Assembly (NCBI GenBank): GCA_910575585.1
Contig: CAJTGF010000053.1
Coordinates: 1 to 37,514, forward strand
Length of the DNA: 37,514 nt
DNA from: Clostridiaceae bacterium
GTDB lineage: Bacteria > Bacillota > Clostridia > Lachnospirales > Lachnospiraceae
Direction of reading: 5' to 3'
In this document: one piece after another, positions 1-32,936 of the stretch
Layout: every line of letters starts with the position of its first letter
Numbering within the stretch: the first letter of the stretch is position 1
The notes under the pieces: generated by a model
Told to the model about the DNA's origin: nothing
Seen by the model: only the letters and a program-made list of their open reading frames with translations
Database searches by the model: none
Made by a program: the position numbers and the translations under genes

Positions 1-300
1 CAGCGTCCCCTACCGAAACCACCTTAAGTGAGCAAACCTTAGCCAGCGAATTCTGGTTTTGCCAGTCAGAGAAGGAGAGATGTCCCGGCAGGGTGAATAT
101 ATGCCATGGAGATGAGACCAGGAAAACAGGAGGGCCTCACCCCGAGTGTTTTCCGCTTTGGGCTCATCGGAATGTTCGGCATATCTGAACCCGGACGGGA
201 CAGCTCTCCTCTGACTGGCCTCACGATACTCCCCGCCCATTGCTCACTCAACAATACAGCAACATAACGAATTTAAAGTTCCGGTTTATCCGGGTTAGGA
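1..300 (+). repeat. Structured repeat element, copy A
   Basis: This is one of three copies in the window; the others are at 32265-32582 (inverted) and 32649-32936 (direct). The sequence folds into one long rod. An outer stem pairs 24-35 with 240-251 (TTAAGTGAGCAA with TTGCTCACTCAA). A long variable stem pairs 61-87 with 196-219. Conserved short stems pair 100-105 with 178-183 and 111-116 with 163-168. A variable terminal hairpin pairs 121-128 with 147-154. A small CCAG/CTGG hairpin lies near 43-56. The left end runs off the window, since copies B and C extend about 18 bases further on that side. Copies A and B share an extra flank of about 40 bases (roughly 260-300) that copy C lacks. No protein is proposed: the minus-strand reading frames here are by-products of the inverted repeats. 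It could be a mobile noncoding RNA or a MITE-like element. Confidence 0.85.
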
Positions 301-336
301 GATCAGCAGATTGTAGATCCATGGAGGGACAGGGAT

Positions 337-945
337 ATGAGATTATATTTGATCCGTCACGGTCAGACGGATTGGAACGTGGCGGGAAGGATCCAGGGAA
401 GCACGGATATTCCCCTTAATGATACGGGGAGGCAGCAGGCGGCGTGTCTGGCAAAGGGCATGGCCAATAGGCCGGTGACCCAGGTTTTTTGCAGCACTCT
501 TTCCAGGGCGTACGAGACGGCCGCCGCCATCGGGGAAAGCCAGGATGTGCCGGTATGCAGGCTTTCGGAGCTGGAGGAGGTAAACTACGGGAAATGGGAA
601 GGGCTGACCATGGAGGAGATCCGGAAAAGATACCCCAAGGAGCTGGAGCAGTGGTATTTGAGCCCTGTGGAGGTGGCGCCGCCGGGGGGAGAGACCCAGA
701 CCCAGGTGTATGAGCGCTGTAAGCGGGCTGTGGCCAGGATCCTGGACCAGGCTAAGGGGGATGTGGCGGTGGTGTCCCACGGGGCTACGGTGGTCTTTCT
801 TTTGGAATATATGCTGGAAGGCACAGGCCGCAGTGAGGAGGATGACATTATCGTGGGAAATGCCAGCATTTCCACAGTGGAGTATGACCGGGAGTCTAAA
901 AGGTTTGCATTGCGGCAGTTAAATGACAGAGAGCATCTGAAGTGA
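337..945 (+). CDS. Histidine phosphatase family protein (phosphoglycerate mutase-like)
   Basis: This 202-residue protein belongs to the histidine phosphatase superfamily, cytosolic enzymes that hydrolyse or transfer phosphate through a phosphohistidine. The N-terminal signature LIRHGQTDWN places the nucleophilic His at residue 8 beside Arg7. The partner arginine is in LSRAYET (Arg57), and the second catalytic histidine is in VVSHGAT (His148). Length and layout fit the cobC/GpmB-like branch, whose members act on small phosphate esters; the true substrate cannot be read from the sequence. A GGAGG ribosome binding site at 322-326 supports the ATG at 337. The gene starts 37 bases after repeat copy A, so its promoter lies in or beyond the repeat. 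A weak hairpin follows the stop. It could be an alpha-ribazole phosphatase, but no cobalamin genes are nearby. Confidence 0.9.
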   Translation: MRLYLIRHGQTDWNVAGRIQGSTDIPLNDTGRQQAACLAKGMANRPVTQVFCSTLSRAYETAAAIGESQDVPVCRLSELEEVNYGKWEGLTMEEIRKRYPKELEQWYLSPVEVAPPGGETQTQVYERCKRAVARILDQAKGDVAVVSHGATVVFLLEYMLEGTGRSEEDDIIVGNASISTVEYDRESKRFALRQLNDREHLK

Positions 946-972
946 GTGTTTTTGGACTACAGGACATGGCTT

Positions 973-1005
973 ATGGGAAGAGATTGTGTATAATCCTCTT
1001 CCCAT
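973..1005 (+). terminator. Possible terminator hairpin after the phosphatase gene
   Basis: ATGGGAAGAG (973-982) pairs perfectly with CTCTTCCCAT (996-1005) around a 13-base loop. Only a weak T-rich stretch follows, so this may be a poor terminator or part of the purL leader. Confidence 0.4.
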
Positions 1006-1119
1006 ATTCCTTATCTTATGATATTCTTTATGTAACTGTTCACCAGGTCTTATGATCATCTGCTTTTTGTGATGCGGGGACCTGAAAAGAAACCATGCGA
1101 GGAAGGAGACACCATCCAC

Positions 1120-4100
1120 ATGAGTGTTAAGAGGATTTTCGTTGAGAAGAAGCCGGATTTTGCCGTGAAGGCCCGCGAACTGGCGGGGGAGATCGGGAGC
1201 TATCTGGGGATAGAGACCGTAACCGGGGTCCGTGTGTTGATTCGTTATGATATTGAGAACTTGTCCGGGGATACCTATGACAGAGCCCTGGGGACTATTT
1301 TTTCGGAGCCGCCTGTGGATTTTCTCTATGAGGAGGACTTTCCAAGGGACGAGACGGATCTGGTATTTTCCGTGGAATACCTGCCGGGGCAGTTTGACCA
1401 GAGGGCAGATTCCGCCCAGCAGTGCGTAAAGCTTTTGAAAGAGGACGAGGAGCCGGTAATCAAAACGGCTACCACCTACGTGATCTCCGGCGGGCTGACC
1501 GGGGAGCAGGCAGATTCCATTAAGTCTTTTTGCATCAACCCGGTGGATTCCAGGGAGGCGGGGATGGAAAAGCCGGATACCCTGGGGACTGTTTTTGAGA
1601 CGCCGGAGGATGTAAAGATCTTTGAGGGATTTTGCGGGCTGGGGCAGGAGGATTTGAAGGAATTGTACGAATCTTTGAACCTTGCCATGACGTTAAAGGA
1701 TTTCCAGCATATCCAAAATTATTTTGCGGGGGAAGAACACAGGGATCCTACCATGACGGAGATCCGGGTGCTGGACACTTACTGGTCCGATCATTGCCGC
1801 CACACCACGTTCCAGACAGAGCTTACGGATGTGACGTTTACGGACGGGGATTACAAGATGCCCATCCAGTCTGCCTATGAGCGGTATTTATCTGACCGGG
1901 ATAAACTTTACGGCGGGAGAACGGACAAGTTTGTGTGTCTGATGGATCTGGCTCTTTTGGCCATGAAGAAGCTTCGCGCCGAAGGGAAGCTGGAGGATCT
2001 GGAGGTGTCGGACGAGATCAACGCGTGCAGCATCGTGGTGCCTGTGGAGATCGACGGCGTGGCGGAGGAGTGGCTGGTGAATTTTAAAAACGAGACCCAC
2101 AACCATCCCACGGAGATCGAGCCCTTTGGCGGCGCGGCTACCTGTCTGGGCGGCGCGATCAGGGATCCGCTGTCCGGGCGGACTTATGTGTACCAGGCCA
2201 TGAGGGTCACCGGCGCGGCGGACCCAAGGAAGTCTCTGGGAGAGACCCTTCACGGGAAGCTGCCCCAGAGGAAGCTGGTTACCGGCGCGGCTTTGGGGTA
2301 TAGTTCTTACGGCAACCAGATCGGGCTGGCTACCGGGTATGTAAAGGAGATCTATCACCCGGACTATGTGGCCAAGCGCATGGAGATCGGCGCGGTCATG
2401 GGGGCAAGTCCCAGAAAGAGCGTGATGCGGGAGACTTCGGATCCGGGAAATATCATCATCCTTTTAGGCGGGCGCACAGGGCGCGACGGCTGCGGCGGAG
2501 CCACCGGATCCTCCAAAGTCCACACCGAAAGCTCCATCGAGACCTGCGGGGCCGAGGTGCAGAAGGGCAACGCGCCTACGGAAAGGAAGATCCAGCGTCT
2601 GTTTCGGCGGCCGGAGGTCAGCAGCATCATCCGCAAGTGCAACGATTTCGGCGCCGGCGGGGTGTCTGTGGCCATCGGCGAGCTGGCGGCAGGGCTTCGG
2701 ATCGATCTGGACAAGGTGCCGAAAAAGTATGCGGGGCTTGACGGAACGGAGATCGCCATTTCCGAGTCCCAGGAGCGCATGGCGGTCGTGGTGGATGAAA
2801 AGGACGTTGACGCGTTTTTGACGTACGCGGGCCAGGAGAATCTGGAGGCCGTGGCCGTGGCTGTGGTGACCCGGGAGCCAAGGCTGGTTATGATTTGGCG
2901 GGGAAAGACTATTGTGGATATCAGCCGGGCTTTTCTGGACACCAACGGGGCGCGCCAGGAGGCGTCGGTTGTGGTGGAAGTTCCCAACCGGGAAGGCAAT
3001 CCATTTGGGGACAGGCCGGATATCCCGGATGTAAGGGGGAAATGGCTGAACATGCTTGGCTCCCTTAATGTATGCTCCCAGAAAGGGCTTGTGGAGATGT
3101 TTGACGGGTCTATCGGCGCAGGTTCGGTATTTATGCCTTACGGCGGTCGCTATCAGCTGACGGAGACCCAGACCATGGTGGCAAAGCTGCCGGTACTCCA
3201 GGGAAAGACGGATACGGTGACCATGATGAGCTATGGATTTGACCCCTATGTGTCCAGCTGGAGCCCTTACCACGGCGCGGTGTACGCAGTGGTGTCTTCG
3301 GTGGCTAAGATTGTGGCATCCGGCGGTGATTTCAGGAAGATACGGTTTACGTTCCAGGAGTATTTCCGCAGGATGACCCAGGAGCCGTCCCGGTGGAGTC
3401 AGCCTTTTGCGGCTCTTCTGGGGGCTTATGAGGCTCAGCTGGGATTCGGGCTTCCCTCCATCGGGGGCAAGGACAGCATGTCCGGAACCTTCAATGATAT
3501 AGACGTGCCGCCGACTTTGGTGTCCTTTGCCGTGGATGTGGCCAGCTTAAAGCATGTGATCACTCCGGAGTTTAAGCGGGCGGGCAGCAAGATCGTGGTG
3601 TTTAAGGCCCTGCGGGATGGGTACGACCTGCCAAGGTATGACCAGCTGATGGAAGGGTACGAAAAGATTCTGGAGGATATGAAAGCCGGCAGGATCATTT
3701 CTGCATATGCCGTGGAGCGGCACGGCATGGCGGAGGCGGTCAGCAAGATGGCTTTCGGCAATCAGATGGGCGTGAAGATCGAGCATAATGTTGACCCAAG
3801 GGATCTGTTTGAGGCCGGATTCGGCAGTATCGTGTGTGAAGTCCCTGACGGACAGGTAGGGAATCTGGCTATAACCTATACGGTGATCGGAGAGGTTACG
3901 GAAAAGGGTACACTGGAATACGGACCAATGACCATCTCCATGGAGGAGGCGCTGAACGCTTGGACCGGCACTTTGGAGCAGGTATTCCCCACCCGGACAG
4001 GGGCAAGTTATGAGACGGTTCCTGACAGGCTCTATGATGTGAAGGAGAAGGGGGAGAGCGTCCATATCTGCAGCCACAAGACGGCGAAGCCCCACGTGTT

Positions 4101-4884
4101 TATCCCCGTATTTCCAGGGACCAACTGCGAGTTTGACAGTGCCAGGGCCTTTTTGCGGGCCGGGGCTACGGTGACAGACCTGGTGTTTAAGAATATGAAT
4201 GCCAATGATATCCGGGAGTCGGTAGAAGCCTTTAAAAAGGAGATCGCCAAGGCCCAGATCGTCATGTTCCCGGGAGGGTTCTCCGCAGGGGACGAGCCGG
4301 AAGGGTCTGCCAAGTTCTTTGCGGCAGTGTTCCGCAACCAGGTGATCAAAGAGGAGATCGAGAAGCTTCTATATGAGCGGGACGGGCTGATGTTAGGCAT
4401 CTGCAACGGGTTCCAGGCGCTGATGAAACTGGGGCTTATTACCGAAGGAAGGATTGAGCCTCAGCACTCGGATTCCCCTACTTTGACCATGAATACCATT
4501 GGGCGCCATGTGTCCAAGATGGTGTACACAAAAGTTATGACCAACAAGTCTCCGTGGCTTATGGGAGCCCAGCTTGGAAAGGTGTACGTAAACCCTGCTT
4601 CCCACGGGGAGGGGCGGTTTGTGGCCAATGAGCAGTGGCTGAAAAAGCTGTTCGACAACGGACAGGTGTGTACCCAGTATGTGGATGAGCAGGGAAGGCC
4701 CACGATGGATGAGTTCTGGAATCCTAACGGGTCTTACATGGCCATTGAGGGGATCACCAGCCCTGACGGGAGGATCTTGGGCAAGATGGCCCACTCGGAG
4801 AGACGGGGCCAGGGAGTTGCCATGAATATTTACGGGGAGCAGGATCTGAAGCTGTTTGAGTCGGGGGTGGAGTATTTTAAGTAG
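1120..4884 (+). CDS. purL: Phosphoribosylformylglycinamidine synthase, single-chain (FGAM synthase)
   Basis: This enzyme catalyses the fourth step of purine biosynthesis, converting FGAR, glutamine and ATP to FGAM. The 1254-residue chain contains all parts fused: an N-terminal PurS-like region, a linker, two AIR-synthase-like halves with the motif NFKNETHNHPTEIEPFGGAA, and a C-terminal class I glutaminase domain. In the glutaminase, the nucleophile is Cys1095 in LGICNGFQ, and His1162 and Glu1164 (SHGEGRF) complete the triad. The open frame reaches back to 1069, but the ATG at 1120 (MSVKRIF) is preferred because AAGGAG lies at 1103-1108 and the shorter form matches the family start. Length fits the clostridial large PurL. 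No other pur gene is adjacent. The rpiR-type gene starts 11 bases after the stop, so the two may be co-transcribed. Confidence 0.97.
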   Translation: MSVKRIFVEKKPDFAVKARELAGEIGSYLGIETVTGVRVLIRYDIENLSGDTYDRALGTIFSEPPVDFLYEEDFPRDETDLVFSVEYLPGQFDQRADSAQQCVKLLKEDEEPVIKTATTYVISGGLTGEQADSIKSFCINPVDSREAGMEKPDTLGTVFETPEDVKIFEGFCGLGQEDLKELYESLNLAMTLKDFQHIQNYFAGEEHRDPTMTEIRVLDTYWSDHCRHTTFQTELTDVTFTDGDYKMPIQSAYERYLSDRDKLYGGRTDKFVCLMDLALLAMKKLRAEGKLEDLEVSDEINACSIVVPVEIDGVAEEWLVNFKNETHNHPTEIEPFGGAATCLGGAIRDPLSGRTYVYQAMRVTGAADPRKSLGETLHGKLPQRKLVTGAALGYSSYGNQIGLATGYVKEIYHPDYVAKRMEIGAVMGASPRKSVMRETSDPGNIIILLGGRTGRDGCGGATGSSKVHTESSIETCGAEVQKGNAPTERKIQRLFRRPEVSSIIRKCNDFGAGGVSVAIGELAAGLRIDLDKVPKKYAGLDGTEIAISESQERMAVVVDEKDVDAFLTYAGQENLEAVAVAVVTREPRLVMIWRGKTIVDISRAFLDTNGARQEASVVVEVPNREGNPFGDRPDIPDVRGKWLNMLGSLNVCSQKGLVEMFDGSIGAGSVFMPYGGRYQLTETQTMVAKLPVLQGKTDTVTMMSYGFDPYVSSWSPYHGAVYAVVSSVAKIVASGGDFRKIRFTFQEYFRRMTQEPSRWSQPFAALLGAYEAQLGFGLPSIGGKDSMSGTFNDIDVPPTLVSFAVDVASLKHVITPEFKRAGSKIVVFKALRDGYDLPRYDQLMEGYEKILEDMKAGRIISAYAVERHGMAEAVSKMAFGNQMGVKIEHNVDPRDLFEAGFGSIVCEVPDGQVGNLAITYTVIGEVTEKGTLEYGPMTISMEEALNAWTGTLEQVFPTRTGASYETVPDRLYDVKEKGESVHICSHKTAKPHVFIPVFPGTNCEFDSARAFLRAGATVTDLVFKNMNANDIRESVEAFKKEIAKAQIVMFPGGFSAGDEPEGSAKFFAAVFRNQVIKEEIEKLLYERDGLMLGICNGFQALMKLGLITEGRIEPQHSDSPTLTMNTIGRHVSKMVYTKVMTNKSPWLMGAQLGKVYVNPASHGEGRFVANEQWLKKLFDNGQVCTQYVDEQGRPTMDEFWNPNGSYMAIEGITSPDGRILGKMAHSERRGQGVAMNIYGEQDLKLFESGVEYFK

Positions 4885-4895
4885 GGAACAGATCA

Positions 4896-5771
4896 ATGCT
4901 TGTTAAAGAAAAACTGCAAAACAGAGAGTATTTTTCGGATATTGACAGCCGCATAGCGGATTACATCCTGGACATGGAGGAGAGACTGCGGGACACCAGC
5001 GTGCGGAAGATGGCAAGGGAGCTGTATGTGGCTCCCTCCACCATCATCCGGTTCTGCCAGAAGGTGGGGTACGAGGGGTTCAATGACTTGAGAGAGGATT
5101 ATCTGAAAGAAGTGGAGTATCTGTCCTCCCATTTTAAATCCCTGGACCCTAATTTCCCTTTTGACAAGGGGGACAAGGAGATAACCGCGGCTGGCAAGAT
5201 CGAGGTACTCTATGAGGAGATCCTGCGGGACTGCAGATCCCTTCTGACGCCGGAGATCCTGAAAAAGGCCGTAGATGTCATTGACAGGGCCACGGAGATC
5301 TACGCGTTCACCCTGGGGCCTCAGATGGGGCTTGTGGAGATTTTCCAGGACAAGATGGCAAGGGTGGGGAAGATGGTCCACGCATGCAGCCGCATAGGGG
5401 AGGGCTATTATGAGGCCAGCTGCTGTCAGGGAACGGCGGCGTTTATTATCATTTCCTACACCGGGGAGACCGAGATTGGGTTAAAGATCACGAAGAAGGC
5501 AAAGGAGCGGGGGATCCCCACCATAGCCATTACTTCTTACGGAAATAATTCCCTGTCAAAGGTGTGCGACGTATGTCTGTATGTGTCTACCAGGGAGAAG
5601 CTTGTGAAGAATCTTGGGACCTTTGGTCTGAACGTGTCGGTGATGTATCTTTTGGACGTGCTGTACGCCGGGTATTTTAACCGGGATTACGACAAGCATT
5701 ATCAGACGAAAGTGAAAGTGGCCAGGGAGTGCGACGGCAGACATTCGGACAATCCGATCCTGGAGGGATAG
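4896..5771 (+). CDS. MurR/RpiR family transcriptional regulator
   Basis: This 291-residue sugar-phosphate-responsive DNA-binding regulator has an N-terminal HTH_6 domain (about 1-77) with the typical stretch TSVRKMARELYVAPSTIIRF, and a C-terminal SIS domain (about 105-250) expected to bind a phosphosugar. The SIS core IIISYTGET (near residue 190) and the IPTIAITSY strand are clear. The gene sits 11 bases after purL and about 200 bases before a GH4 6-phospho-beta-glucosidase gene. In this family such linkage usually means local control, so the GH4 gene is the likely target, with a phosphorylated beta-glucoside as a plausible effector (inference). Ribosome binding is weak (AGGGAA at 4884-4889), which suggests coupling to purL translation. 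Confidence 0.92.
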   Translation: MLVKEKLQNREYFSDIDSRIADYILDMEERLRDTSVRKMARELYVAPSTIIRFCQKVGYEGFNDLREDYLKEVEYLSSHFKSLDPNFPFDKGDKEITAAGKIEVLYEEILRDCRSLLTPEILKKAVDVIDRATEIYAFTLGPQMGLVEIFQDKMARVGKMVHACSRIGEGYYEASCCQGTAAFIIISYTGETEIGLKITKKAKERGIPTIAITSYGNNSLSKVCDVCLYVSTREKLVKNLGTFGLNVSVMYLLDVLYAGYFNRDYDKHYQTKVKVARECDGRHSDNPILEG

Positions 5772-5820
5772 GACTGGAAGGGAACGTTGTTCACCATCCC
5801 AAAGAGAAAAGGGAAGGGAA

Positions 5821-5952
5821 ATGAAAACACTGTACCAGATGGGGCCCAAGGCATTGACAAACAGGGGAAAATCCGTGAAAATAGAAGTACCAGAAAGGCG
5901 GGGCAGCCCGGAGGGGACAGGGTTTAGCGTTCAGGGGGCCTTGCCGGAATAG
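5821..5952 (+). CDS. Possible small ORF (43 aa) in the leader of the GH4 gene
   Basis: An ATG at 5821 follows a purine-rich GGGAAGGG site at a short distance and opens a 43-codon frame starting MKTLYQMGPK and ending GALPE. Its stop (5950-5952) lies directly before the GAAGGAGG site of the GH4 gene at 5970, an arrangement compatible with translational coupling or a leader peptide. It is basic and shows no membrane segment or recognised domain. Supporting evidence is only the start site and spacing; chance is a real alternative. Confidence 0.3.
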   Translation: MKTLYQMGPKALTNRGKSVKIEVPERRGSPEGTGFSVQGALPE

Positions 5953-5969
5953 AAGGAGGATAATCAATC

Positions 5970-7373
5970 ATGGAAAAGAAACCCGTAAAGATTGTGACTA
6001 TCGGCGGCGGGAGCAGCTACACTCCGGAGCTTATGGAGGGCTTCATCAAGCGGTATGAGGAGCTTCCCATCAAGGAGATCTGGCTGGTTGACATTGAGGA
6101 AGGGAAGGAGAAGCTGGAGATCGTGGGCAAGATGGCTCAGCGCATGTGGGACGCTTCCCCCTACGACGTGAAAGTGCATCTGACCCTTGACAGGAGAGAG
6201 GCGCTGCCGGGAGCGGATTTCGTGACCACACAGTTCCGTGTGGGCCTTTTGAACGCCAGGATCAAGGACGAGCGGATCCCTCTGTCCTACGGCATGCTGG
6301 GACAGGAGACCAACGGGGCCGGCGGCATGTTCAAGGCGTTCCGCACCATCCCTGTGATCCTTAACATTGTGGAGGACATGAAGGAGTTGTGTCCCGACGC
6401 ATGGCTGGTGAACTTTACCAACCCAAGCGGCATGGTAACCGAGGCGGTGATCCGTTACGGCAAGTGGGATAAGGTCATCGGTCTGTGCAATGTTCCGGTA
6501 GGGGCTATGTTAAGAGAGCCGGGGATGATCGGCAAGGAGCCGCAGGAGCTGATCTACAAGTTCGCGGGACTGAACCATTTCCACTGGCATAAGGTGTTTG
6601 ACTTAAACGGAAAAGACGTGACCCAGGATATCATCGACAAGCTGTACGACCCGGCTGCGGATGCGGGAACCCCGGCGAATGTGTTTGATGTGAAGTACTT
6701 TAAGGAGCAGCTGGATCAGATGGGTATGATCCCATGCGCTTACCACAGATATTACTACAGGCAGGAGGAGATGCTCAACCATGCCCTGGAGGAGTACAAT
6801 GATCCTGAGAAGGGTACAAGGGCTCAGCAGGTGAAGCAGACAGAAAAGGAGCTGTTTGAGCTTTACAAGAATCCGGAGCTGAATGAGAAGCCGGAGCAGC
6901 TGGCCAAAAGAGGCGGCGCCCACTACTCGGATGCGGCCTGTGAGACCATTGCTTCCATCTATGCCAACAAGAATACCCATATCGTGGTATCCACCAAGAA
7001 CAACGGCGCCATTCCGGATCTTCCGGCGGACTGTGTGGTGGAAGTTTCCGCCCATGTGGGCGCTTGCGGGGCTCTTCCCATTGCCTTCGGGTCCCTCCGT
7101 CCGGCAGAGAGAGGCTGGCTGCAGGTGATGAAGAATATGGAATTGTGCGTGTGCGAGGCGGCTGTGACGGGAGATTACGGCATGGCGCTGCAGGCATTTA
7201 TCCTGAATCCCCAGGTTCCCTCCGGCGAGACGGCTAAGAAGGTGCTGGATGAGCTTTTGATCGCCCACAAGAAGTATCTGCCCCAGTTTGCAAAGAAGAT
7301 CGCCCAGCTTGAGAAAGAGGGCGTTACGGTGAAGGATGACGTGGCAAGAGAGCTGTCGGCTCAAGGGCTGTAA
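5970..7373 (+). CDS. licH: 6-phospho-beta-glucosidase, glycoside hydrolase family 4
   Basis: This 467-residue cytosolic enzyme of family GH4 uses NAD and a divalent metal to cleave 6-phospho-beta-glucosides delivered by PTS transport. The N-terminal Rossmann motif KIVTIGGGSSYTPEL (about 7-21) is present. The metal-binding cysteine is in GLCNVPVG (Cys173), and the metal-binding histidine is in GLNHFHWH (His203). The CNVP form is typical of the LicH/CelF beta branch, whereas 6-phospho-alpha-glucosidases carry CDMP, which is why the beta specificity is chosen. A strong GAAGGAGG site precedes the ATG. The RpiR regulator upstream fits control by phosphosugar. No EIIBC permease is in this window, although HPr and enzyme I are encoded at 23.6-25.6 kb. 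A strong terminator follows. Confidence 0.93.
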   Translation: MEKKPVKIVTIGGGSSYTPELMEGFIKRYEELPIKEIWLVDIEEGKEKLEIVGKMAQRMWDASPYDVKVHLTLDRREALPGADFVTTQFRVGLLNARIKDERIPLSYGMLGQETNGAGGMFKAFRTIPVILNIVEDMKELCPDAWLVNFTNPSGMVTEAVIRYGKWDKVIGLCNVPVGAMLREPGMIGKEPQELIYKFAGLNHFHWHKVFDLNGKDVTQDIIDKLYDPAADAGTPANVFDVKYFKEQLDQMGMIPCAYHRYYYRQEEMLNHALEEYNDPEKGTRAQQVKQTEKELFELYKNPELNEKPEQLAKRGGAHYSDAACETIASIYANKNTHIVVSTKNNGAIPDLPADCVVEVSAHVGACGALPIAFGSLRPAERGWLQVMKNMELCVCEAAVTGDYGMALQAFILNPQVPSGETAKKVLDELLIAHKKYLPQFAKKIAQLEKEGVTVKDDVARELSAQGL

Positions 7374-7392
7374 GGATTTTAATTTTATATAG

Positions 7393-7438
7393 AAAGAGGA
7401 GCTGCTTACATTTTGTTACGTAAGCAGCTCCTCTTTTA
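7393..7438 (+). terminator. Rho-independent terminator after the GH4 gene
   Basis: A 17-bp perfect stem (7393-7409 with 7420-7436) has AAAGAGG at its base and CCTCTTTT on the 3' side, with a 10-base loop. It separates the core genes from the restriction-modification island. Confidence 0.85.
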
Positions 7439-7459
7439 ATGGGAGAAATTAAAAAGAAC

Positions 7460-7488
7460 TTGTGTTCGACATATAAATATGTTATGAT
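7460..7488 (+). promoter_or_regulatory. Putative sigma-A promoter of the methyltransferase gene
   Basis: TTGTGT (7460-7465) and TATGAT (7483-7488) are separated by 17 bases in an AT-rich stretch between the upstream terminator and the methyltransferase start. The -35 is a partial match. Confidence 0.5.
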
Positions 7489-7524
7489 ATAGCAAACAGA
7501 CCGATGAAGTTAAGGAGTGGTTCT

Positions 7525-8385
7525 ATGAAAAAGGCGGATAAACCAGCGATCAACATGGATGAGGTGATGAATCAGGTTTTTGAAGGTGATTGCCTTGAAT
7601 ATATGAATAAGATTCCGGATGGCAGTGTTGACATGATTCTTTGTGATCTGCCGTATGGAATGACACAGAATGAATGGGACTGCTATATATCTCTGGACGA
7701 ATTATGGAAACAGTATAATCGAATTATTAAACCCAACGGGGCCATCGTATTAACTTCCAATGGGATTTTTACAGCAAAACTAATCTTAAGTCAGCCTCAT
7801 ATTTATAAATATAAGTGGGTCTGGGAAAAATCAAAGCCAACTAATTTTCTCAATGCCAAGAAGCAGCCCCTTCGCAAACATGAAGATGTGTGTGTCTTTT
7901 ATAAGAAACAGCCTACCTATCATCCGCAGATGACCAAGGGTGACCCATACGATAAGGGGGTAAGAAAGGACCAGCTTTGCGGAAATTACGGTGACTTTGA
8001 GCCGGTTCATGTGGCCAGCAAGGGGGAGCGCTATCCGACGGATATCATATATGTGAAGACGGCTGAATGTGAAGGAGCCGTTTTACATCCCACCCAGAAG
8101 CCCATTGAGCTTGGAAGATACATGGTGCGGACCTATACCAATCCTGGGGACGTCGTATTGGACAATACATTTGGCAGCGGTTCCTTTCTGGTTGCCGCAT
8201 TAATGGAAGGAAGGAACTTTATCGGCATTGAAAAAAATGAAAACGTTGCGTTGTTTAAAAGGGAAGATATCGATTATATTGATGTGGCCAAAAGAAGATT
8301 ATTTTTGGCCTGGGAACAGCTGGACAAAAAGACGCGAAAATACATAAAGGAACAAAATCTTATTTCTGAATTTCAAGAAAGGTAA
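7525..8385 (+). CDS. Site-specific DNA methyltransferase, beta class (N6-adenine or N4-cytosine)
   Basis: This 286-residue DNA amino-methyltransferase has the catalytic motif IV DLPYG at residues 41-45 near the N-terminus and the S-adenosylmethionine-binding motif NTFGSGSF at 214-221 near the C-terminus. That order defines the beta class. HPTQKP before motif I is also typical. An in-frame ATG exists at 7504, but the ATG at 7525 has AAGGAG at 7512-7517 with 7-base spacing and is preferred. Its stop directly abuts the nuclease-methylase gene, so the two form an operon. The pairing suggests that this enzyme methylates one strand of an asymmetric site, with the fused enzyme modifying the other (inference). 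It is more AT-rich than its neighbours, as expected for a horizontally acquired defence gene. Confidence 0.92.
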   Translation: MKKADKPAINMDEVMNQVFEGDCLEYMNKIPDGSVDMILCDLPYGMTQNEWDCYISLDELWKQYNRIIKPNGAIVLTSNGIFTAKLILSQPHIYKYKWVWEKSKPTNFLNAKKQPLRKHEDVCVFYKKQPTYHPQMTKGDPYDKGVRKDQLCGNYGDFEPVHVASKGERYPTDIIYVKTAECEGAVLHPTQKPIELGRYMVRTYTNPGDVVLDNTFGSGSFLVAALMEGRNFIGIEKNENVALFKREDIDYIDVAKRRLFLAWEQLDKKTRKYIKEQNLISEFQER

Positions 8386-11142: not shown

Positions 11143-11228
11143 AAGACTCTGTAGGAGACAGCCCGGGAATAAAACAACAGCGGCTGCGTCATACTAAGCG
11201 TACGACTATGAGGAAAGGAAGATAACAG

Positions 11229-11669: not shown

Positions 11670-11673
11670 AGAT

Positions 11674-11711: not shown

Positions 11712-11731
11712 TACATAAGATTTAGGCAGGG

Positions 11732-21291: not shown

Positions 21292-21395
21292 TGTGTGAAA
21301 GGCGGGGCAGGCATTGCCTTGGCCTGGGAAGGGATGCGGCCACAGGGGGCGCCCGTTGGGCGGAAAGTTAAACAAGAATAAGGGGAGGTGAGGAT

Positions 21396-23559: not shown

Positions 23560-23564
23560 GGCTT

Positions 23565-23831: not shown

Positions 23832-23863
23832 CAAAACATTAACTTTAAGGAGGGGAAAGCATT

Positions 23864-25576: not shown

Positions 25577-25656
25577 CCATAGCCGGCCAGGACCGCTTAT
25601 ATGGGCGGTAAGGTCATCGCAAAAGCTGTGACCTGATGGATCAAGAGACAAAAAGG

Positions 25657-25710
25657 CGCATCCCCGTAAACGGCAGCAAAGGAGCAAAGTTTGCGGCGTC
25701 CGGGGATGCG
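25657..25710 (-). terminator. Stable hairpin after ptsI, terminator-like on the minus strand
   Basis: CGCATCCCCG (25657-25666) pairs perfectly with CGGGGATGCG (25701-25710), with an inner GCAAA/TTTGC stem. The T-run (CCTTTTT) follows only when read on the minus strand. A weaker AGGTCA/TGACCT hairpin lies just upstream and may serve ptsI. Confidence 0.45.
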
Positions 25711-25785
25711 TTATGGCAGGATCCGCGGATCCGTCAAAGTGATGGGGCCGGATCGTGACAGACATAACACAAAGGACAGGGGCGT

Positions 25786-27075: not shown

Positions 27076-27131
27076 AGCAAAACTGTGCGGGGAAAATGAA
27101 TGTTTGCTGAGATAAATGGAGGAATAACCTT

Positions 27132-28202
27132 GTGAAAATGTGGGAGGATTATATTAGAAAAGTGGTTCCCTATGTGCCGGGCGAGCAGCCACAGGGGGAC
27201 CTTGTGATCAAATTAAATACCAATGAGAATCCATATCCACCGGCTCCTGGGGTGTTGAAGGCTTTGAGAGAGATGGACCCGGATCAATTCCGCAGATACC
27301 CGGATCCGTCAGCAAGCTTGCTTACCAAGGCGCTGGCGGATCGTTATGGTCTGCCCCAGGACCAGATCTTTGTGGGGGTGGGATCGGACGATGTGCTGGG
27401 GATGGCATTTCTGACTTTTTTTAATTCCCAAAAGCCCATCTTATTTCCTGATATCACCTATTCTTTTTATCCGGTGTGGGCCGATCTTTTTAAGATCCCC
27501 TATGAGACGCCTGCCCTGGACCATGGGTTTTGTGTAGATCCTAAGGATTACAGAAGGGAAAATGGGGGCATCGTTTTGGCCAATCCCAACGCGCCTACGG
27601 GCATATATCTTCCCATCGACAAGGTGGAGGATATGGTCCGGTGGAATCAGGATTCTGTGGTCATCGTGGATGAGGCTTACATTGATTTTGGCGGACAGTC
27701 GGCCAGGAGCCTGATTGACAGATATGAAAATTTGCTGGTGGTGCAGACTTTCAGCAAGTCCAGATCCATGGCGGGGATGCGCATCGGATTCGCCATGGGC
27801 TCCCAAAAGCTCATTAAAGCGCTGCAGGATGTGAAGTACTCTTACAATTCCTACACCATGGATTACCCTTCGGTCATCCTTGGGGCAGAGGCGGTGAAGG
27901 ATGAAACATATTTTTGCCAGACTGTGGCCAAGATCGTAAAGACCAGAGAAGAGGGGAAAAGGCGGTTTACGGAGATGGGATTTTCCTGCACGGATTCCCA
28001 GACGAATTTTCTCTTTGTCAGCCACAAAAAGGCGCCGGCCAGGGCAATCTTTGAGGCGCTGCGGCAAGAGCGGATCTATGTGCGGTATTTTGCGGCGCCC
28101 AGGCTGGAGGATCATCTGCGGGTGAGTATCGGGACGGATGAGGAGATGGAGACGCTGTACCGGTTTTTGGAGAAGGAGCTGCCTAATTTATCATTGCGTT
28201 AG
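27132..28202 (+). CDS. hisC: Histidinol-phosphate aminotransferase family (PLP-dependent)
   Basis: This 356-residue fold-type I aminotransferase should transfer the amino group of glutamate to imidazole acetol phosphate, or act on a related keto acid. The N-terminal motif KLNTNENPYPP (27-37) is characteristic of HisC. NPNAPTG (151-157), VDEAYIDF (Asp180) and SKSRSMAGMRIGF with the PLP lysine Lys209 are all present. GTG at 27132 is chosen because GGAGG (27118-27122) is 9 bases away; the ATG at 27138 is less well spaced. No other his genes surround it, so a role as an aromatic or other aminotransferase of the same subfamily is possible. Confidence 0.9.
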   Translation: MKMWEDYIRKVVPYVPGEQPQGDLVIKLNTNENPYPPAPGVLKALREMDPDQFRRYPDPSASLLTKALADRYGLPQDQIFVGVGSDDVLGMAFLTFFNSQKPILFPDITYSFYPVWADLFKIPYETPALDHGFCVDPKDYRRENGGIVLANPNAPTGIYLPIDKVEDMVRWNQDSVVIVDEAYIDFGGQSARSLIDRYENLLVVQTFSKSRSMAGMRIGFAMGSQKLIKALQDVKYSYNSYTMDYPSVILGAEAVKDETYFCQTVAKIVKTREEGKRRFTEMGFSCTDSQTNFLFVSHKKAPARAIFEALRQERIYVRYFAAPRLEDHLRVSIGTDEEMETLYRFLEKELPNLSLR

Positions 28203-28249
28203 AGCGGAAGGGTTATTGCTAGAAACGGAGAAATGAGGCTGATGATGGA

Positions 28250-29374
28250 ATGGATGATGGGAGAAGGATCCTTCGGATCCTGCTGAATATTCTGGTTCCG
28301 GCAGCAGAGATTTTGCTGGTGTGCGTGGGGGGCTTGTGGCTCCTTCGGTTTTTTCTGCCATTTGTGATCGGGTGGCTGATCGCCATGGTAGCCAATCCGC
28401 TGGTGAAGTTTTTGGAGCGGCGTCTGAATCTGGTCCGCAGGCACAGTTCGGCCATTATCGTGGTGGCAGTGCTGGCAGGGATTATTGGCGGGTTGTATTT
28501 TTTGGTGGGAAGAGTTATAATAGAGATACGATTGCTCCTTGTGGACATACCGGATATTTATGAAACGGTCCGTCTGGAAGTGATGGAGGCTCTGGATTCT
28601 CTAAACCGGATGGTGGCCAGGATGCCGGCAGGGATCCAAGAATGGTTTGACCGGGCCAATGAAAATCTGGGCAGCATTGCCAGCGGCCTGATGCAGAGGA
28701 TCGCGTTTCCCACGGTGACTGTGGCGGGCCATGTGGCCAAGGGCATACCTGGCGCCCTGGTCAATTCCATTGTGGTGATCCTTTCCTCCTATTTTTTTAT
28801 TGCGGAGCAGGATCGGATCCGGGCTATGGCCGGAAAGCTGATACCCAAATCTTTTTATTCCTACGGCGGGCTGTTTCGAAAGGATATTAAGAATCTGATC
28901 GGCGGATATTTTCTGGCGCAGTTCCGTATCATGTTTGTGGTGGCTGCAGTGCTGGCGGTGGGATTTGTGATTCTGGGGGTCAGGTACGGGATCTTGCTGG
29001 CTGTTTTGATCGCCATACTGGATTTTCTGCCGCTGTTCGGCACCGGTACCGCCCTGTTCCCGTGGGCTGTGGTGAAGCTCCTGTCCGGGGAGACGGCGTT
29101 TGCGGCAGGGCTTGTGCTTTTGTATGTGTTGACTCAGGTGGTGCGTCAGATCATCCAGCCCAAGATCGTGGGGGACTCCATGGGGCTTCCTCCTCTTTTG
29201 ACGCTTCTTTTTTTATATGTAGGTTTTAAGGTCCGCGGGATCTCGGGCATGATCCTGGCGGTTCCTGTGGGACTTGTGGGTGTAAAGCTGTATGAGTACG
29301 GCGCGTTCGATTCCCTCATAGAGCAGGGGAAGCTTTTAGTACAGGAGATTAACAGACTTCGGAAAGAGGATTGA
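28250..29374 (+). CDS. ytvI: Sporulation integral membrane protein YtvI (AI-2E transporter superfamily)
   Basis: This 374-residue protein has about eight membrane helices in the AI-2E/PerM layout: two N-terminal helices, a third near 65-85, a long soluble loop (about 90-160), and a C-terminal bundle. DFLPLFGTGTALFPWA and VGDSMGLPPLLTLLFLYVGF match the YtvI group, sporulation-linked membrane proteins with unknown biochemical role. The ATG at 28250 is the only sensible start, though ribosome binding is modest. Its TGA shares its final base with the ATG of the GH25-like gene (29374), so both are co-translated. Confidence 0.88.
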   Translation: MDDGRRILRILLNILVPAAEILLVCVGGLWLLRFFLPFVIGWLIAMVANPLVKFLERRLNLVRRHSSAIIVVAVLAGIIGGLYFLVGRVIIEIRLLLVDIPDIYETVRLEVMEALDSLNRMVARMPAGIQEWFDRANENLGSIASGLMQRIAFPTVTVAGHVAKGIPGALVNSIVVILSSYFFIAEQDRIRAMAGKLIPKSFYSYGGLFRKDIKNLIGGYFLAQFRIMFVVAAVLAVGFVILGVRYGILLAVLIAILDFLPLFGTGTALFPWAVVKLLSGETAFAAGLVLLYVLTQVVRQIIQPKIVGDSMGLPPLLTLLFLYVGFKVRGISGMILAVPVGLVGVKLYEYGAFDSLIEQGKLLVQEINRLRKED

Positions 29375-30252
29375 TGAAGATTAAGAGAAGAGACCGATTA
29401 GCCGTTGGGGTTTTAGGGGCGTTTCTTACCATTCTTTGTCCCTGCCGGGCCTGGGCTTTTGACCCATGGACGAATCTGAATGGATACTGGATTTCTGCTG
29501 ACGGCAGAACTACCATAGAGGGCGCTTTGGAAAAGGGAGTGACCATTACCAAATATCAGAATAAATCGGGGGAGATCCAGTGGGCGATGCTGCCGGAGAA
29601 TGATATCTCCTTTGTTATGGTGCGGTTAGGCTACCGCGACGATCTGGATCCTTATTTTAAGACCAATATGGAGGGCGCGGCCAACGTTAAGCTGGATACC
29701 GGCGTGTGTTTTTACAGCAAGGCGGCAACCCTGGAGGAGGCCAGGAAAGAGGCTGCCTATGTGCTTGACGTGGTGAAGGATTACCGGGTCTCTTATCCCA
29801 TTGCCTTTGAACTGGACGCCCAGTTCGCGGAGGACAAGAAGCTGGACAGGATCCAGATCACCAAGCTGACAGGCGAGTTCTGCGACGCCATCGAGGAGGC
29901 CGGATACAAGGTGGTGGTGTTTGGGGACAGCGATTGGCTTAGCCAGCATGTGGAGACCAGGAAGCTTCCTTATGACGTGTGGTACAGCCGGTACGGCATG
30001 GCCCATGATTATCCCAATCGGGCCCTTTGGCGCTGCACGGACCGGGCGGATGTGAAAGGGATCGAGGGACAGGTGTGTCTGGAGTTTTCGTTTGTGGATT
30101 ACGGCAGGATCTTTCAGGGGACCGGGTGGAGAGAGATCAATGGAAAGAAATATTATTTTAAGAATTATGAGATGGTGAAGAACAGCGGGGTGAGGATTGG
30201 GGAAGAGGTGTATTTCTTTGATAAAGAGGGGCAGGGACAGAAGACGAAGTAG
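29374..30252 (+). CDS. GH25-like cell-wall protein with altered active-site acids
   Basis: This 292-residue exported protein has a signal peptide (about 1-28, ending in CRAWA), a domain resembling GH25 N-acetylmuramidases (about 50-245), and a short C-terminal cell-wall-binding-like repeat (GWREINGKKYYFKN and GVRIGEEVYFFDKEG). The fold markers ITKYQNKSGEIQW, FVMVRLGY and GVCFYSKAATLEEARKEA are clear. However, the usual GIDVS aspartate is Thr57 (GVTITKYQ), and the expected D-x-E pair reads PIAFELDAQ, with Glu146 and Asp148 in swapped order. It may therefore be inactive and only bind wall, or work differently. ATG 29374 overlaps the ytvI stop; the TTG at 29371 is less likely. Confidence 0.85.
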   Translation: MKIKRRDRLAVGVLGAFLTILCPCRAWAFDPWTNLNGYWISADGRTTIEGALEKGVTITKYQNKSGEIQWAMLPENDISFVMVRLGYRDDLDPYFKTNMEGAANVKLDTGVCFYSKAATLEEARKEAAYVLDVVKDYRVSYPIAFELDAQFAEDKKLDRIQITKLTGEFCDAIEEAGYKVVVFGDSDWLSQHVETRKLPYDVWYSRYGMAHDYPNRALWRCTDRADVKGIEGQVCLEFSFVDYGRIFQGTGWREINGKKYYFKNYEMVKNSGVRIGEEVYFFDKEGQGQKTK

Positions 30253-30255
30253 AGG

Positions 30256-30294
30256 AAGAGGTGAACTTCTTTGGGGAGGGGAGCCTCTTTTTTT
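30256..30294 (+). terminator. Probable terminator after the GH25-like gene
   Basis: AAGAGG (about 30256-30261) can pair with CCTCTT (about 30284-30289), followed by a run of T. The loop is long, so the hairpin is weak. It marks the end of the GC-rich core region. Confidence 0.5.
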
Positions 30295-30337
30295 AGTGAG
30301 AGGGGAGGTGGAACGGTGAACTAAAACCTAGAAATTG

Positions 30338-30367
30338 TTGCTGAAACAGATATGGATGGGGTATAAT
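30338..30367 (+). promoter_or_regulatory. Putative promoter of the small accessory genes
   Basis: TTGCTG (30338-30343) and a perfect TATAAT (30362-30367) are 18 bases apart in AT-rich DNA upstream of the gene at 30477. Confidence 0.55.
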
Positions 30368-30476
30368 TGAAAAGAGAGTGGGGATGGAAGACCAGTCTAA
30401 GGTTTCGTAAGCCCGGTGAGTTAAAAGATAAGGAAATTGGTCATGCTCCTGAGGAGTATATTCTGGAGGCGATTTC

Positions 30477-30923
30477 GTGTCGGATTATATTGTGAAGATC
30501 ATTCCCAAAGACCCATTTTACAAAGTCTCGGATGTGACGTTGCGATTGGCAAAGTCTTTTCTCCAAATGCGCGTACGCTGTGATTTTATTGAGGTTGGAG
30601 TCAGTGAAACACCAGTGTTTGTTGATTGTGGAGAAAATCTTGATAAGATTTCTTGCCCAGAATGTGGCGCGAAACTTGATCCAGAGTGGTGGGGAGAGGC
30701 TATGGATCAAGCTGCTGAATGCGGATTTACATCACTTAAAACAGAAATGCCCTGTTGTAAAAGATTGATGTCCCTCAATGACTTAGACTACGATTTTCTG
30801 TGTGGATTTGCTTCTGCTTTGATCAGTATTTTTAATCCGGTAGAGTATATTGATGATAAGATGCTAGAGGCTATTGAAAATATTCTTGGCATCCCTGTAA
30901 GGAGGATAGAGGCGCATATTTGA
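30477..30923 (+). CDS. Hypothetical zinc-ribbon-containing protein (148 aa)
   Basis: I do not recognise a named family. The central part has a CPECG motif (about residue 61) followed by EMPCCK (about residue 92), which could form a four-cysteine zinc site. The C-terminal half is acidic and helical. There is no signal peptide or membrane segment. It starts with GTG at 30477, with GGAGG at 30464-30468 as its ribosome site; no nearby ATG fits. Neighbours are a DUF1963 gene and other small orphan genes of the kind found among polymorphic-toxin immunity genes, so an immunity role is possible but unproven. Confidence 0.7.
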   Translation: MSDYIVKIIPKDPFYKVSDVTLRLAKSFLQMRVRCDFIEVGVSETPVFVDCGENLDKISCPECGAKLDPEWWGEAMDQAAECGFTSLKTEMPCCKRLMSLNDLDYDFLCGFASALISIFNPVEYIDDKMLEAIENILGIPVRRIEAHI

Positions 30924-31109
30924 TTTTTTAAGACAGTATGTTTAACTCTGCAAGTGGATTATTCGATGTCAGTGAAAAGAAGGTAGATTCTTGTTTGACG
31001 GAAGCAGTCGGTTCCTGTTAATTGCCGTTAAAGGGTTATAAAGTTAATGTGTAGGATGAAGTATATGGGAGAATAACTATTGGCTTACTTGATTAAATAC
31101 GGATAAAAT

Positions 31110-31781
31110 ATGGTTAAGAAATATGAGATAGTTGGATTTGAAAAGGCGTCAAAAAGGATCACAAAACCAATCACAAAATTTGGCGGACAGCCAATTGGAA
31201 TAAAGGAATCTCAATGGCCGGTTAGTCAAGGCTGGGATGACAAGATGATGTTTGTTGGGCAGATATTGATAGAAAAGGGGATGTTGGGAAACGACAAGGA
31301 TTCTATCGCATATATTTTTGTGACGCACCCCAAAAGTTGTGAAGATGACTTTTTTGATCCAGATGTCGCTGAATGGAATGGCGGAGAGAATGCGGTGATC
31401 ATTCAGGCCATCGAAGATATCGATTTTGAAAATGAAGGCTGTGCAGAGGGACCTACAGTATTTGATGAAAATAATGAAAGATTTGAGTACATTCCAATCT
31501 TAAAGGAGGGGAGCGATCCGGAATTTATAACAAGTAAAGAATACCGAAGGTTAGATGATGCCAAAAGAGATAACTATTTTAATAGCATAGATACAGACAA
31601 AATTGGAGGCACGCCTAATTTCTTTCGCGGGGATGAATGGCCAGAAGGAGAATGGAAGCTTCTCTTGCAGCTTCATTGTAATTTTTTGCCATTTGTATTA
31701 AATTTAGGAGGAGGGATGGCGATTTTGTTTGTTTTTATATCAGCTGATCATAAAGATGCAGGATTATTAGTACAATGTTAG
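31110..31781 (+). CDS. DUF1963 (YwqG-like) family protein
   Basis: This 223-residue protein shows the YwqG/DUF1963 pattern: FGGQPIGIKESQWPVSQGWDDKMMFVGQI near the N-terminus, KIGGTPNFFRGDEWP in the middle, and LLLQLHCNFLPFVLNLGGGMAILFVFIS at the end. Known members are soluble proteins of unclear biochemistry, and many occur next to polymorphic toxins as presumed immunity proteins. No toxin gene is in this window. The ribosome site is weak. The region 30924-31109 upstream and 31782-32001 downstream shows no convincing gene, only AT-rich DNA. Confidence 0.85.
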   Translation: MVKKYEIVGFEKASKRITKPITKFGGQPIGIKESQWPVSQGWDDKMMFVGQILIEKGMLGNDKDSIAYIFVTHPKSCEDDFFDPDVAEWNGGENAVIIQAIEDIDFENEGCAEGPTVFDENNERFEYIPILKEGSDPEFITSKEYRRLDDAKRDNYFNSIDTDKIGGTPNFFRGDEWPEGEWKLLLQLHCNFLPFVLNLGGGMAILFVFISADHKDAGLLVQC

Positions 31782-32001
31782 AATTGTTTAGTTATGGTTT
31801 TTAGAAAAACAATCTAATAGAGCCAATCGATTGATAACAGATGCAGAAGAAGGATAAACCAGTGGAAGGATGTCTTTCGGGAAAATAGGAAAGCGGATAA
31901 AAGTAAATGGGGATTTTGGGCTCAACCTTTGTAAAAGAGAAGAGTAACATTAAAGGGGAAGAATTATATAGGGAGTTAGAAAGATATGTTCTGTTAGAAA
32001 T

Positions 32002-32292
32002 TTGTTTATTGAGATTAACTTAACAGAATGTGATAAAAGTAATAAAATAAAGGTGATCAGAACTAATATAAGCGATAAACCTTTAGATGAAGATATAAAG
32101 AGACAATTATGTGTTGATATTTTTGATGAACCTTACAGGTATAGATACAACTCTTTTGATTGGTTTGATAAGTCAATTACTTTTTTTGAGATAGTAACTA
32201 TAGATTTTTTTGATGAAAATGAAGATTTATTATTTCAGATTGTTTATGAGTTGTTAAAATTATATCCTAACCCGGATAAACCGGAACTTTAA
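32002..32292 (+). pseudogene. Fragment of a small acidic protein whose 3' end lies in repeat copy B
   Basis: The frame (96 codons from TTG 32002) encodes an acidic protein (IDFFDENEDLLFQIVYELLKLY) that looks like a genuine immunity-type protein. No ribosome site fits, and the frame is open back to 31972 without a standard start, so the N-terminus may be lost. The last nine or so codons (NPDKPEL and stop) are read from repeat copy B, which begins at about 32265. The original C-terminus has therefore probably been replaced by insertion of the repeat. I do not recognise a domain. Confidence 0.5.
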
Positions 32293-32582
32293 ATTCGTTA
32301 TGTTGCTGTATTGTTGAGTGAGCAATGGGCGGGGATTGTCGTGAGGCCAGTCAGAGGAGAGCTGTCCCATCCGGGTTCAGATATGCCAAACATTCCGATG
32401 AGCCCAAAGCGGAAATCAGTCGGGTATCAGCCCTCCTGCTTTCCTGGTCTCATCTTCATGGCATAGATTCACCCGGACGGGACAGCTCTCCTCTGCCTGG
32501 CAAAACCAGAATTCGCTGGATAAAGTTTGCTCACTTAAGGTGGTTTCGGTAGGGGACGCTGCCTCAACTTTGCAGTGAAAAA
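32265..32582 (-). repeat. Structured repeat element, copy B (inverted relative to A)
   Basis: This is the reverse complement of copy A, about 90 percent identical by eye over 1-300 and including the extra flank TCCTAACCCGGATAAACCGG at its left edge. It extends 18 bases further than copy A can be seen to, sharing TTTCACTGCAAAGTTGA with copy C (read on the minus strand). The variable stem pairs 32346-32368 with 32479-32501 with one mismatch, and the terminal hairpin GGAAATCAG/CAGGAGGG differs from copy A but still closes. Copies B and C face each other across about 66 bases (32583-32648) holding no gene. Confidence 0.88.
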
Positions 32583-32648
32583 TATAGAAGCAGGATTCGT
32601 TCCCATAGATATTATGCACTACCTATCACCGCAGACAAAGCAGTTATC

Positions 32649-32936
32649 TTTTCACTACAGAGTCGAAACAGCGTTCCCTATCAAACCACCTTAAGTGAGC
32701 AAATCCCGGCCAGCGAATTCTGCTTTTGTCCGGGAGGGAAGGCAGGCTGTGTGCCGGGCGGGTGAATCTATGCCATGGAGATGAGACCAGGGAACCAGGA
32801 GGGCCTAACCCCTCCTGGTTCCCGTTTTGGGCTCATCGGAATGTCTGGCATATCTGAACCCGAACGGCACACAGCCTGCCTTCCCTCCCGGGCTCCGCCA
32901 CAATCCCCGCCCATTGCTCACTCAACAATACAGCAA
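32649..32936 (+). repeat. Structured repeat element, copy C (direct relative to A)
   Basis: The conserved parts match copies A and B (outer stem TTAAGTGAGCAA / TTGCTCACTCAA; GCCATGGAGATGAGACCAGG; GGGCTCATCGGAATGT; the CCCGCCCATTGC region). The arms of the two variable stems are nearly unrelated in sequence to those of A and B but pair better: 32730-32756 with 32865-32891, almost perfect over 27 bases, and 32790-32803 with 32810-32823, perfect over 14. Edges are defined by loss of similarity after ACAATACAGCAA and before TTTTCACT. Confidence 0.88.

What the first reader, a model, noticed from the sequence alone, without database searches (positions are those of the whole stretch)
1..32936. A family of long structured repeats with covarying stems, possibly an undescribed noncoding RNA or hairpin element
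Three copies (1-300, 32265-32582, 32649-32936) share conserved loops, an outer stem and two inner stems (TATGCC/GGCATA, GATGAG/CTCATC), while two other stems vary. In copy C the long stem (32730-32756 with 32865-32891) is built from bases almost unrelated to those of A and B (61-87 with 196-219), yet pairs nearly perfectly. The terminal hairpin likewise changes from GGAAAACA/TGTTTTCC in A to a 14-bp GGGAACC/GGTTCCC stem in C. This is what selection on structure looks like, and it is hard to explain by simple repeat decay. I do not recognise it as a known RNA class, retron or IS end; no reverse transcriptase or transposase is joined to it. Function (mobile noncoding element, RNA decoy, recombination site) is open.
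Basis: seen in the sequence. Interest (0 to 1): 0.85.

Follow-up and report, generated by a model that had tools for sequence, protein, structure and literature searches.

The report
Capped hairpin jumping elements in Hungatella
The three repeats are halves of a gene-less jumping element of a gut bacterium; its folded core occurs at about 140 places in this genome and, on stems of quite different sequence, in other genera of the same family, which makes it an undescribed kind of mobile hairpin whose function is still open.

Summary
Observation confirmed and enlarged. Copies B and C are the two inverted arms of one 0.72-kb element (32266-32984); copy A (1-299) is half of another, cut by the contig start. 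The core hairpin ("cap", ~130 nt) has 140 distinct places in this genome and occurs in 21 of 397 sampled genomes of the family, own genome included. Rfam has no match. The outer ends match the ends of an insertion sequence of sister species (508-aa protein without Pfam/NCBIfam match); one nested insertion shows the site CCTAA without duplication. So the two-armed element is a non-autonomous derivative. In sister species the cap rides in a 215-bp element with other ends and ~9-12 bp target duplications, about 17 nt upstream of Shine-Dalgarno motifs. Covariation is strong (34 of 44 pairs). But in two other genera the outer stems are near-perfect palindromes of unrelated sequence between loci, without G-U preference, so DNA-level palindrome upkeep may explain stems. 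The cap shows conserved purine loops and, within Hungatella, strand-specific wobble tolerance. Most likely: a mobile palindrome whose cap is read single-stranded (RNA or ssDNA) for its own spread. Function unproven.

The parts
1..299 (+). Copy A: one arm plus tip1 of a two-armed element; the other arm is missing because the contig starts here
   Evidence: tip1 (rc of CCTAACCCGGATAAACCGG) ends at 299
80..204 (+). Conserved cap (core hairpin) of copy A
   Evidence: CM R1 match, E 7.4e-30
61..219 (+). Variable long stem of copy A (61-87 with 196-219) enclosing the cap
263..299 (-). Tip1: matches the left end of the IS found in G006, with a small hairpin CCGG-ATAAA-CCGG (by eye)
32266..32984 (.). 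Complete two-armed non-autonomous element (719 bp)
32266..32302 (+). Tip1 (left IS end), starts CCTAACCCGGATAAACCGG
   Evidence: 26 nt at 96% identity to the IS left end, E 1.5e-6 in a four-locus comparison
32303..32561 (-). Arm B (A-like arm), inverted; its cap at 32361-32485
   Evidence: E 1.7e-29
32562..32668 (.). Centre between the arms, short form (107 bp); long forms of about 460 bp occur elsewhere in the genome
32669..32936 (+). Arm C (80% identical to arm A); its cap at 32749-32873; long stem 32730-32756 with 32865-32891 unrelated in sequence to that of A
   Evidence: E 1.3e-29
32937..32984 (+). Tip2 (right IS end), ..TTTTGCCATTTTGCGCAAG..CTTAAGGATCTAA
   Evidence: 15-16 nt identical to the IS right end, weak alone (E 0.03 and 0.009 in a four-locus comparison); the same right-end stretch goes with the protein in G205, G193 and G154

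Best explanation
The window holds one and a half copies of a gene-less transposable element. Shown: it has two inverted arms. Each arm is a quasi-palindrome topped by a conserved ~130-nt cap made of short covarying stems broken by purine loops (ATGGA opposite GGAATG; a GA/GA step below the apical GGG/CCC). Its outer tips match the two ends of an IS that encodes a 508-aa protein of no named family. One nested insertion shows the site CCTAA without a target duplication. In sister species the same cap travels inside a 215-bp element with different ends, target duplications of about 9-12 bp (up to 14 if an ambiguous TAG is counted) and a target about 17 nt upstream of Shine-Dalgarno motifs. Caps also occur in other genera of the family on unrelated stems. 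Inferred: the element is moved in trans by transposases that recognise the tips. The palindromic stems stay perfect mainly by template switching, so their sequence is free to turn over. The cap is the part under selection; it is read in single-stranded form, as RNA of the cap strand or as single-stranded DNA, and serves the element's own spread or upkeep rather than the neighbouring host gene. Within this reading, recognition by a mobility protein is the likelier role, a trans-acting RNA the less likely one.
For: Multi-copy and mobile: 140 distinct cap places. One element lies inside another copy's cap (L110); the one uninterrupted counterpart found (L203) has CCTAA at the site. All 11 tip pairs that my patterns found (10 loci, one tip counted twice) are one tip1 plus one tip2. 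IS ends: two G006 copies, proteins 98% identical, different flanks, same ends; both ends go with the protein in G205 (92% identity), the right end also in G193 (79%) and G154. Single-arm form: direct-repeat score of 8 or more in the 25-nt flanks of 32 of 52 copies (31 of them at the edges) against 1.6% of 1019 shuffled flank pairs; an SD-like motif 8-26 nt from an edge in 44 of 52, background 3.5% per flank. Structure. Cap across genera: 58 matches (54 outside Hungatella), 97.5% of cells paired, 37 of 38 pairs with both-sided changes, covariation 0.840 against 0.220 shuffled. Strand-specific folding within Hungatella, outer helix left out: single-sided changes from the group consensus give G-U 59 and A-C 20, while loop transitions of the two types are 112 and 114 (p 1.2e-4); as distinct events 35:17 against 28:40, p 0.006. 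Cap versus arm: in G156 caps are 77% identical, arms from 75 nt outward at the level of shuffled sequence.
Against: The across-genus wobble excess (34 G-U, 11 A-C) rests on one column pair (23 of the 34); without it the count is 11:11. The across-genus alignment was fitted to the model, and its number of further pair types does not exceed shuffles (452 of 500 as high). 65-bp elements with the same ends and no cap exist at 11 of 22 further TIR instances by my reading (8 flagged by the script), all 11 with an SD-like motif nearby by eye, so the cap is not needed for mobility of that family. No autonomous partner of the single-arm family was found (PF01609 in 4 draft genomes, 20 of 23 hits read; 20 further TIR loci). 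The transposase role is inferred: no catalytic domain was recognised. No transcript data.
Confidence: 0.55

Rival explanations
1. Neutral palindrome upkeep: the element is an ordinary MITE and all covariation, the cap included, arises because template switching during replication copies one arm onto the other; nothing selects the fold.
For: Arms of 84-127 bp, 95-100% complementary, with unrelated sequence between loci; no G-U preference in arms; no G-U excess in caps across genera once one column pair is left out; mechanism described in PMC8794818 (abstract and part of the introduction seen).
Against: Template switching should not conserve unpaired loops, yet ten unpaired columns, all purines, are 94-100% conserved over the 58 aligned caps; G-U exceeds A-C in Hungatella cap stems while the matching transitions in loops do not differ.
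Confidence: 0.25
2. 5'-leader regulator: the element gives the downstream gene a structured leader that controls its expression.
For: 39 of 52 single-arm copies lie just upstream of an SD and start codon; G440 4 of 4, and 4 of 4 loci of G363, G316, G212, G246, in a wider 110-nt window with background 8.6% per flank; window copy A ends 37 nt before a gene start.
Against: Orientation is not kept: 31 antisense, 8 sense; G156 5 antisense and 1 sense of 11, G440 all sense. In the single-arm copies the strand with wobble tolerance is opposite to most host mRNAs. G367 0 of 6, G280 1 of 5 and G131 1 of 11 are at gene starts.
Confidence: 0.1
3. Trans-acting noncoding RNA or decoy, for instance in phage defence, carried by transposons because copy number helps.
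For: Cap kept across genera on different stems and different ends; strand-specific folding in Hungatella.
Against: No common protein gene beside six inspected loci (read by eye); one cap with its stems had no match in 50,697 phage records (one query only); no expression data.
Confidence: 0.1

Closest known systems
MITEs / non-autonomous IS derivatives of prokaryotes (review PMC10969869, passages read)
   Same: Gene-less, high copy number, mostly intergenic, terminal repeats and target duplications in the single-arm form, transcripts predicted to fold, ends shared with an IS in the two-armed form
   Different: One conserved internal cap is shared by elements with different ends and different insertion modes, over many genera, while stems turn over completely
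Bacillus cereus repeats bcr1-bcr18 (PMC6542083, passages read)
   Same: 100-400 bp mobile repeats restricted to one bacterial group, bcr1 with up to 130 copies; possible site-specific recombination-like mobility
   Different: TTTAT motif there; here IS ends at CCTAA, or ~9-12 bp duplications upstream of SD motifs; a shared cap in 18 of 334 sampled genera
REP/BIME with TnpA-REP (PMC2817692, PMC8266576, PMC3733652: starts of abstracts in listings)
   Same: Palindromes in high copy, in BIMEs in alternating orientation, possibly mobilised by an enzyme of the IS200-like kind
   Different: REPs are 20-40 bp; here a ~130-nt cap on stems of about 20 to 127 bp; a GTAG/CGTC foot and a REP transposase were not searched for
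IS200/IS605-type insertion sequences (starts of abstracts in listing; anatomy otherwise recalled)
   Same: Tip anatomy: subterminal hairpins, insertion at a short fixed sequence, no target duplication
   Different: The 508-aa protein matches no Pfam model, so no HUH/Y1 domain was recognised

Membership tests
MITE (two-armed element of the window) | No coding capacity of its own | tested here: met
   no open frame of 80 aa or more lies within 32293-32984
MITE (two-armed element of the window) | Ends shared with an autonomous element | tested here: met
   IS in G006 and G205; right end also in G193 and G154
MITE (two-armed element of the window) | Target-site duplication | tested here: not met
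   nested insertion L110 against L203 shows CCTAA and no duplication; no direct repeat seen at 32266/32984; not scored over all copies
MITE (single-arm element of sister species) | Terminal inverted repeats and target duplication | tested here: met
   TAGGTAATTGCGAAA..TTTCGCAATTACCTA; 32 of 52 with direct repeats
MITE (single-arm element of sister species) | Known autonomous partner | tested here: inconclusive
   none found; genomes are drafts
Any of 4227 Rfam families | Match at gathering score | tested here: not met
   best chance matches E 1.5 and 1.4
IS200/IS605 (for the 508-aa protein) | HUH/Y1 transposase domain | tested here: not met
   no Pfam or NCBIfam match above cut-off
REP/BIME | 20-40 bp palindrome with tagged foot and an associated TnpA-REP | tested here: inconclusive
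   size differs; foot and enzyme were not searched for
Group II intron | Domain V and intron-encoded protein joined to the repeat | tested here: not met
   the only group II match in the window is 34616-34689, 1.6 kb from the element

The most novel reading that the evidence does not exclude
The cap is a new class of mobile structured nucleic acid: a ~130-nt single-strand-read hairpin head that moves between unrelated transposon chassis and genera, and that sits on (perhaps builds, by fold-back copying) locus-specific near-perfect inverted repeats of up to 127 bp. It would be a transposon module defined by structure rather than by ends or sequence.
Probability: 0.22. Interest if true: 0.85.

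Novelty: new variant of a known kind. Interest (0 to 1): 0.62.

Why it matters
It is a good natural case for separating two sources of base-pair covariation, selection on a fold and self-correction of palindromes, inside one molecule. It also joins three things that I did not see reported together in eight literature searches (open-licence papers only): a structured motif shared by many genera of one family, interchangeable transposon ends, and insertion at a fixed distance upstream of Shine-Dalgarno motifs. It further exposes an insertion sequence whose protein has no named family in the libraries searched.

Tried and rejected
Autonomous copy in the window's genome: only decayed pieces of the IS protein (C111 with three stops, C3 59 aa with one stop). 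The ~7.2-kb insert in one copy (L108) looks like a separate mobilisable element with a serine recombinase (by eye). The PF01609 transposase beside a TIR in G003 is merely another target. Retron, riboswitch and group II readings: no Rfam match at the repeat; the only RT/maturase-like remnant (34270-34596, by eye) goes with the group II piece 1.3 kb outside the element. Internal ORF after the AGGAGG of the apical loop: not kept between copies (by eye). Stem derived from a phage: one query, no match. Arms as pieces of neighbouring genes in G156: inconclusive; open frames run into the arms at several of 11 loci (for example the last codons of a frame in L304), none proven to be gene sequence. Orientation-fixed leader RNA: rejected on orientation counts.
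Full report
What is there. The three copies exist as described. Copies B and C are the two inverted arms of a single element, 32266-32984: tip1, arm B (minus), a 107-bp centre, arm C (plus), tip2. Copy A is the half left when the contig began inside a repeat. In the 6.13-Mb genome the cap model finds 144 matches (150 candidates scored, so a lower bound), 140 distinct places; 74 of them form 37 diverging pairs within 1.3 kb, against 1 converging and 0 same-strand pairs; 18 of the 66 unpaired ones lie within 1.3 kb of a contig start. The centre is short (about 108 or 134 bp) or long (about 460 bp). A search with the B-C element in 61 genomes hit 11, own genome included, all among the 26 of the same genus, none of the 35 outside; three of the 11 (G006, G011, G019) have pieces of about 24-46 nt only.

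Ends. The outer tips match an IS found twice in G006 (proteins 98% identical, different flanks). Tip1 equals its left end (26 nt, 96%); tip2 shares TTTTGCCATTTTGCG with its right end, a short match that is weak alone. The protein recurs in G205 (92%, both ends present), G193 (79%, right end present; a left-end-like stretch lies 1.4 kb from the gene) and G154 (broken; right-end stretch present). It is found in 7 of 299 family genomes, own decayed copies included, and more distantly on 11 plasmid records, named ArsR regulator in one and hypothetical in seven; two have no annotation and one no gene there. It matches no Pfam or NCBIfam family above cut-off, no PHROG better than E 0.33 and no solved structure better than E 0.2. 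An element inside another copy's cap (L110) and the single uninterrupted counterpart found (L203) show insertion at CCTAA without duplication. In the window's own genome only decayed pieces of the gene remain.

A second chassis. In G022 and G007, and in two G016 copies that I examined, the arm alone forms a 215-bp element, TAGGTAATTGCGAAA..TTTCGCAATTACCTA. The 52 copies examined are the best-scoring ones with enough flank, one duplicate locus (L102) dropped. 32 of 52 have a direct-repeat score of 8 or more in the 25-nt flanks, 31 of them at the edges, against 1.6% of 1019 shuffled flank pairs. In 39 of 52 an SD and the start codon of an open frame lie just outside one edge, never both; control windows 100-400 nt away give 9-15 of 104 flanks. 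An SD-like motif lies 8-26 nt from one edge in 43 and from both in 1 of 52, mostly at 15-18 nt, and is missing in 8; background 3.5% per flank. TATAAT-like boxes lie in the last 18 nt upstream in 16 of 39 against 4-7 in the other 12-nt bins, so the SD rather than the promoter is the common feature. Core-less 65-bp elements with the same ends exist (11 of 22 further TIR instances by my reading, 8 flagged by script): the ends suffice, the cap is separable.

The cap over genera. A model of the core (R1, 37 sequences, 38 pairs) hits 21 of 397 genomes drawn from the family, own included, in 18 of 334 genera (at most 8 candidates per genome were scored there), and 3 of 391 drawn from the class, own included, all three in the same family. 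G156 has 66 matches, G131 12, G145 8. Stems under the cap differ: in G156 (11 of 66 places examined) arms are 84-127 bp, 95-100% complementary, 4 of 11 without a mismatch, and from 75 nt outward no more alike between loci than shuffled sequence, while caps are 77% identical; G280 behaves likewise in 5 places with stems of 32-64 bp; G367 copies share their stems; G131 stems are alike and shorter. In G145 two of 8 loci gave no stem beyond the cap by this method. Inverted pairs recur in three of 55 loci searched (L272, L290, L333). Sites at gene starts, in a 110-nt window with background 8.6% per flank: G440 4 of 4, four other genomes 4 of 4, G156 6 of 11, G145 4 of 8, G367 0 of 6, G280 1 of 5, G131 1 of 11.

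Selection or upkeep. On 59 arms, 34 of 44 pairs have both-sided changes, 0 of 500 shuffles as high. Over genera 37 of 38 pairs do, with a covariation score of 0.840 against 0.220; that alignment was fitted to the model, and the count of further pair types does not exceed shuffles (452 of 500 as high). Covariation alone does not settle the matter, since template switching makes compensatory changes (PMC8794818, abstract). Mismatches in G156 arms: GT 3, AC 9, other 5 of 1221. Single-sided changes from the group consensus in Hungatella cap stems, outer helix left out: G-U 59, A-C 20, transversion 22, with 39 compensated; loop transitions of the two types 112 and 114; as distinct events 35:17 against 28:40, p 0.006. 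Across genera G-U 34 and A-C 11 in caps, 4 and 6 in outer stems, but 23 of the 34 are one column pair, so this adds little. Ten unpaired cap columns, all purines, are 94-100% conserved. I conclude that the stems are kept mainly by DNA-level copying and that the cap is probably selected as a fold of one strand; RNA and ssDNA cannot be told apart here.

Function. Orientation to host genes is mixed (31 antisense, 8 sense; other genera differ), which argues against a leader regulator. No common protein gene accompanies six inspected loci. The mechanism I commit to is self-serving mobility or maintenance: tips are cut by an IS protein in trans; the cap is the single-strand head that such palindromes keep. 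Literature: eight searches showed me no description of this element; only open-licence papers are held.

Noticed in passing
L108 (G000:C19) about 653-7815: A ~7.2-kb mobilisable element (serine recombinase, mobilisation-like and BlaI/BlaR1-like genes, all by eye) sits inside the centre of one long two-armed copy.
   Followed up: partly
window 34616-34689: 3' end of a group II intron (Rfam RF00029) beside a remnant of an intron-encoded protein (34270-34596, by eye), not linked to the repeat.
   Followed up: no
window 33706-34182 (-): 158-aa frame that looks by eye like the N-terminal part of an IS630-type transposase, 0.7 kb from the element.
   Followed up: no
L055:1570-3024; G006, G205, G193, G154, G288, G324; plasmids: IS protein of about 508 aa without Pfam/NCBIfam match, annotated on plasmids as ArsR regulator (one record) or hypothetical (seven); may be an unnamed transposase family.
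   Followed up: partly
G007/G022, e.g. L243, L244, L246, L247, L251: Very short (65-bp) core-less elements with the same ends and, by eye, the same kind of SD-upstream target.
   Followed up: partly
L110 1380-2015: Element nested in the cap of another copy at CCTAA.
   Followed up: yes
L100 (G003:C2): A diverged single-arm copy lies directly upstream of a purL-like gene (by eye); in the window copy A ends 0.8 kb upstream of purL, probably coincidence.
   Followed up: no
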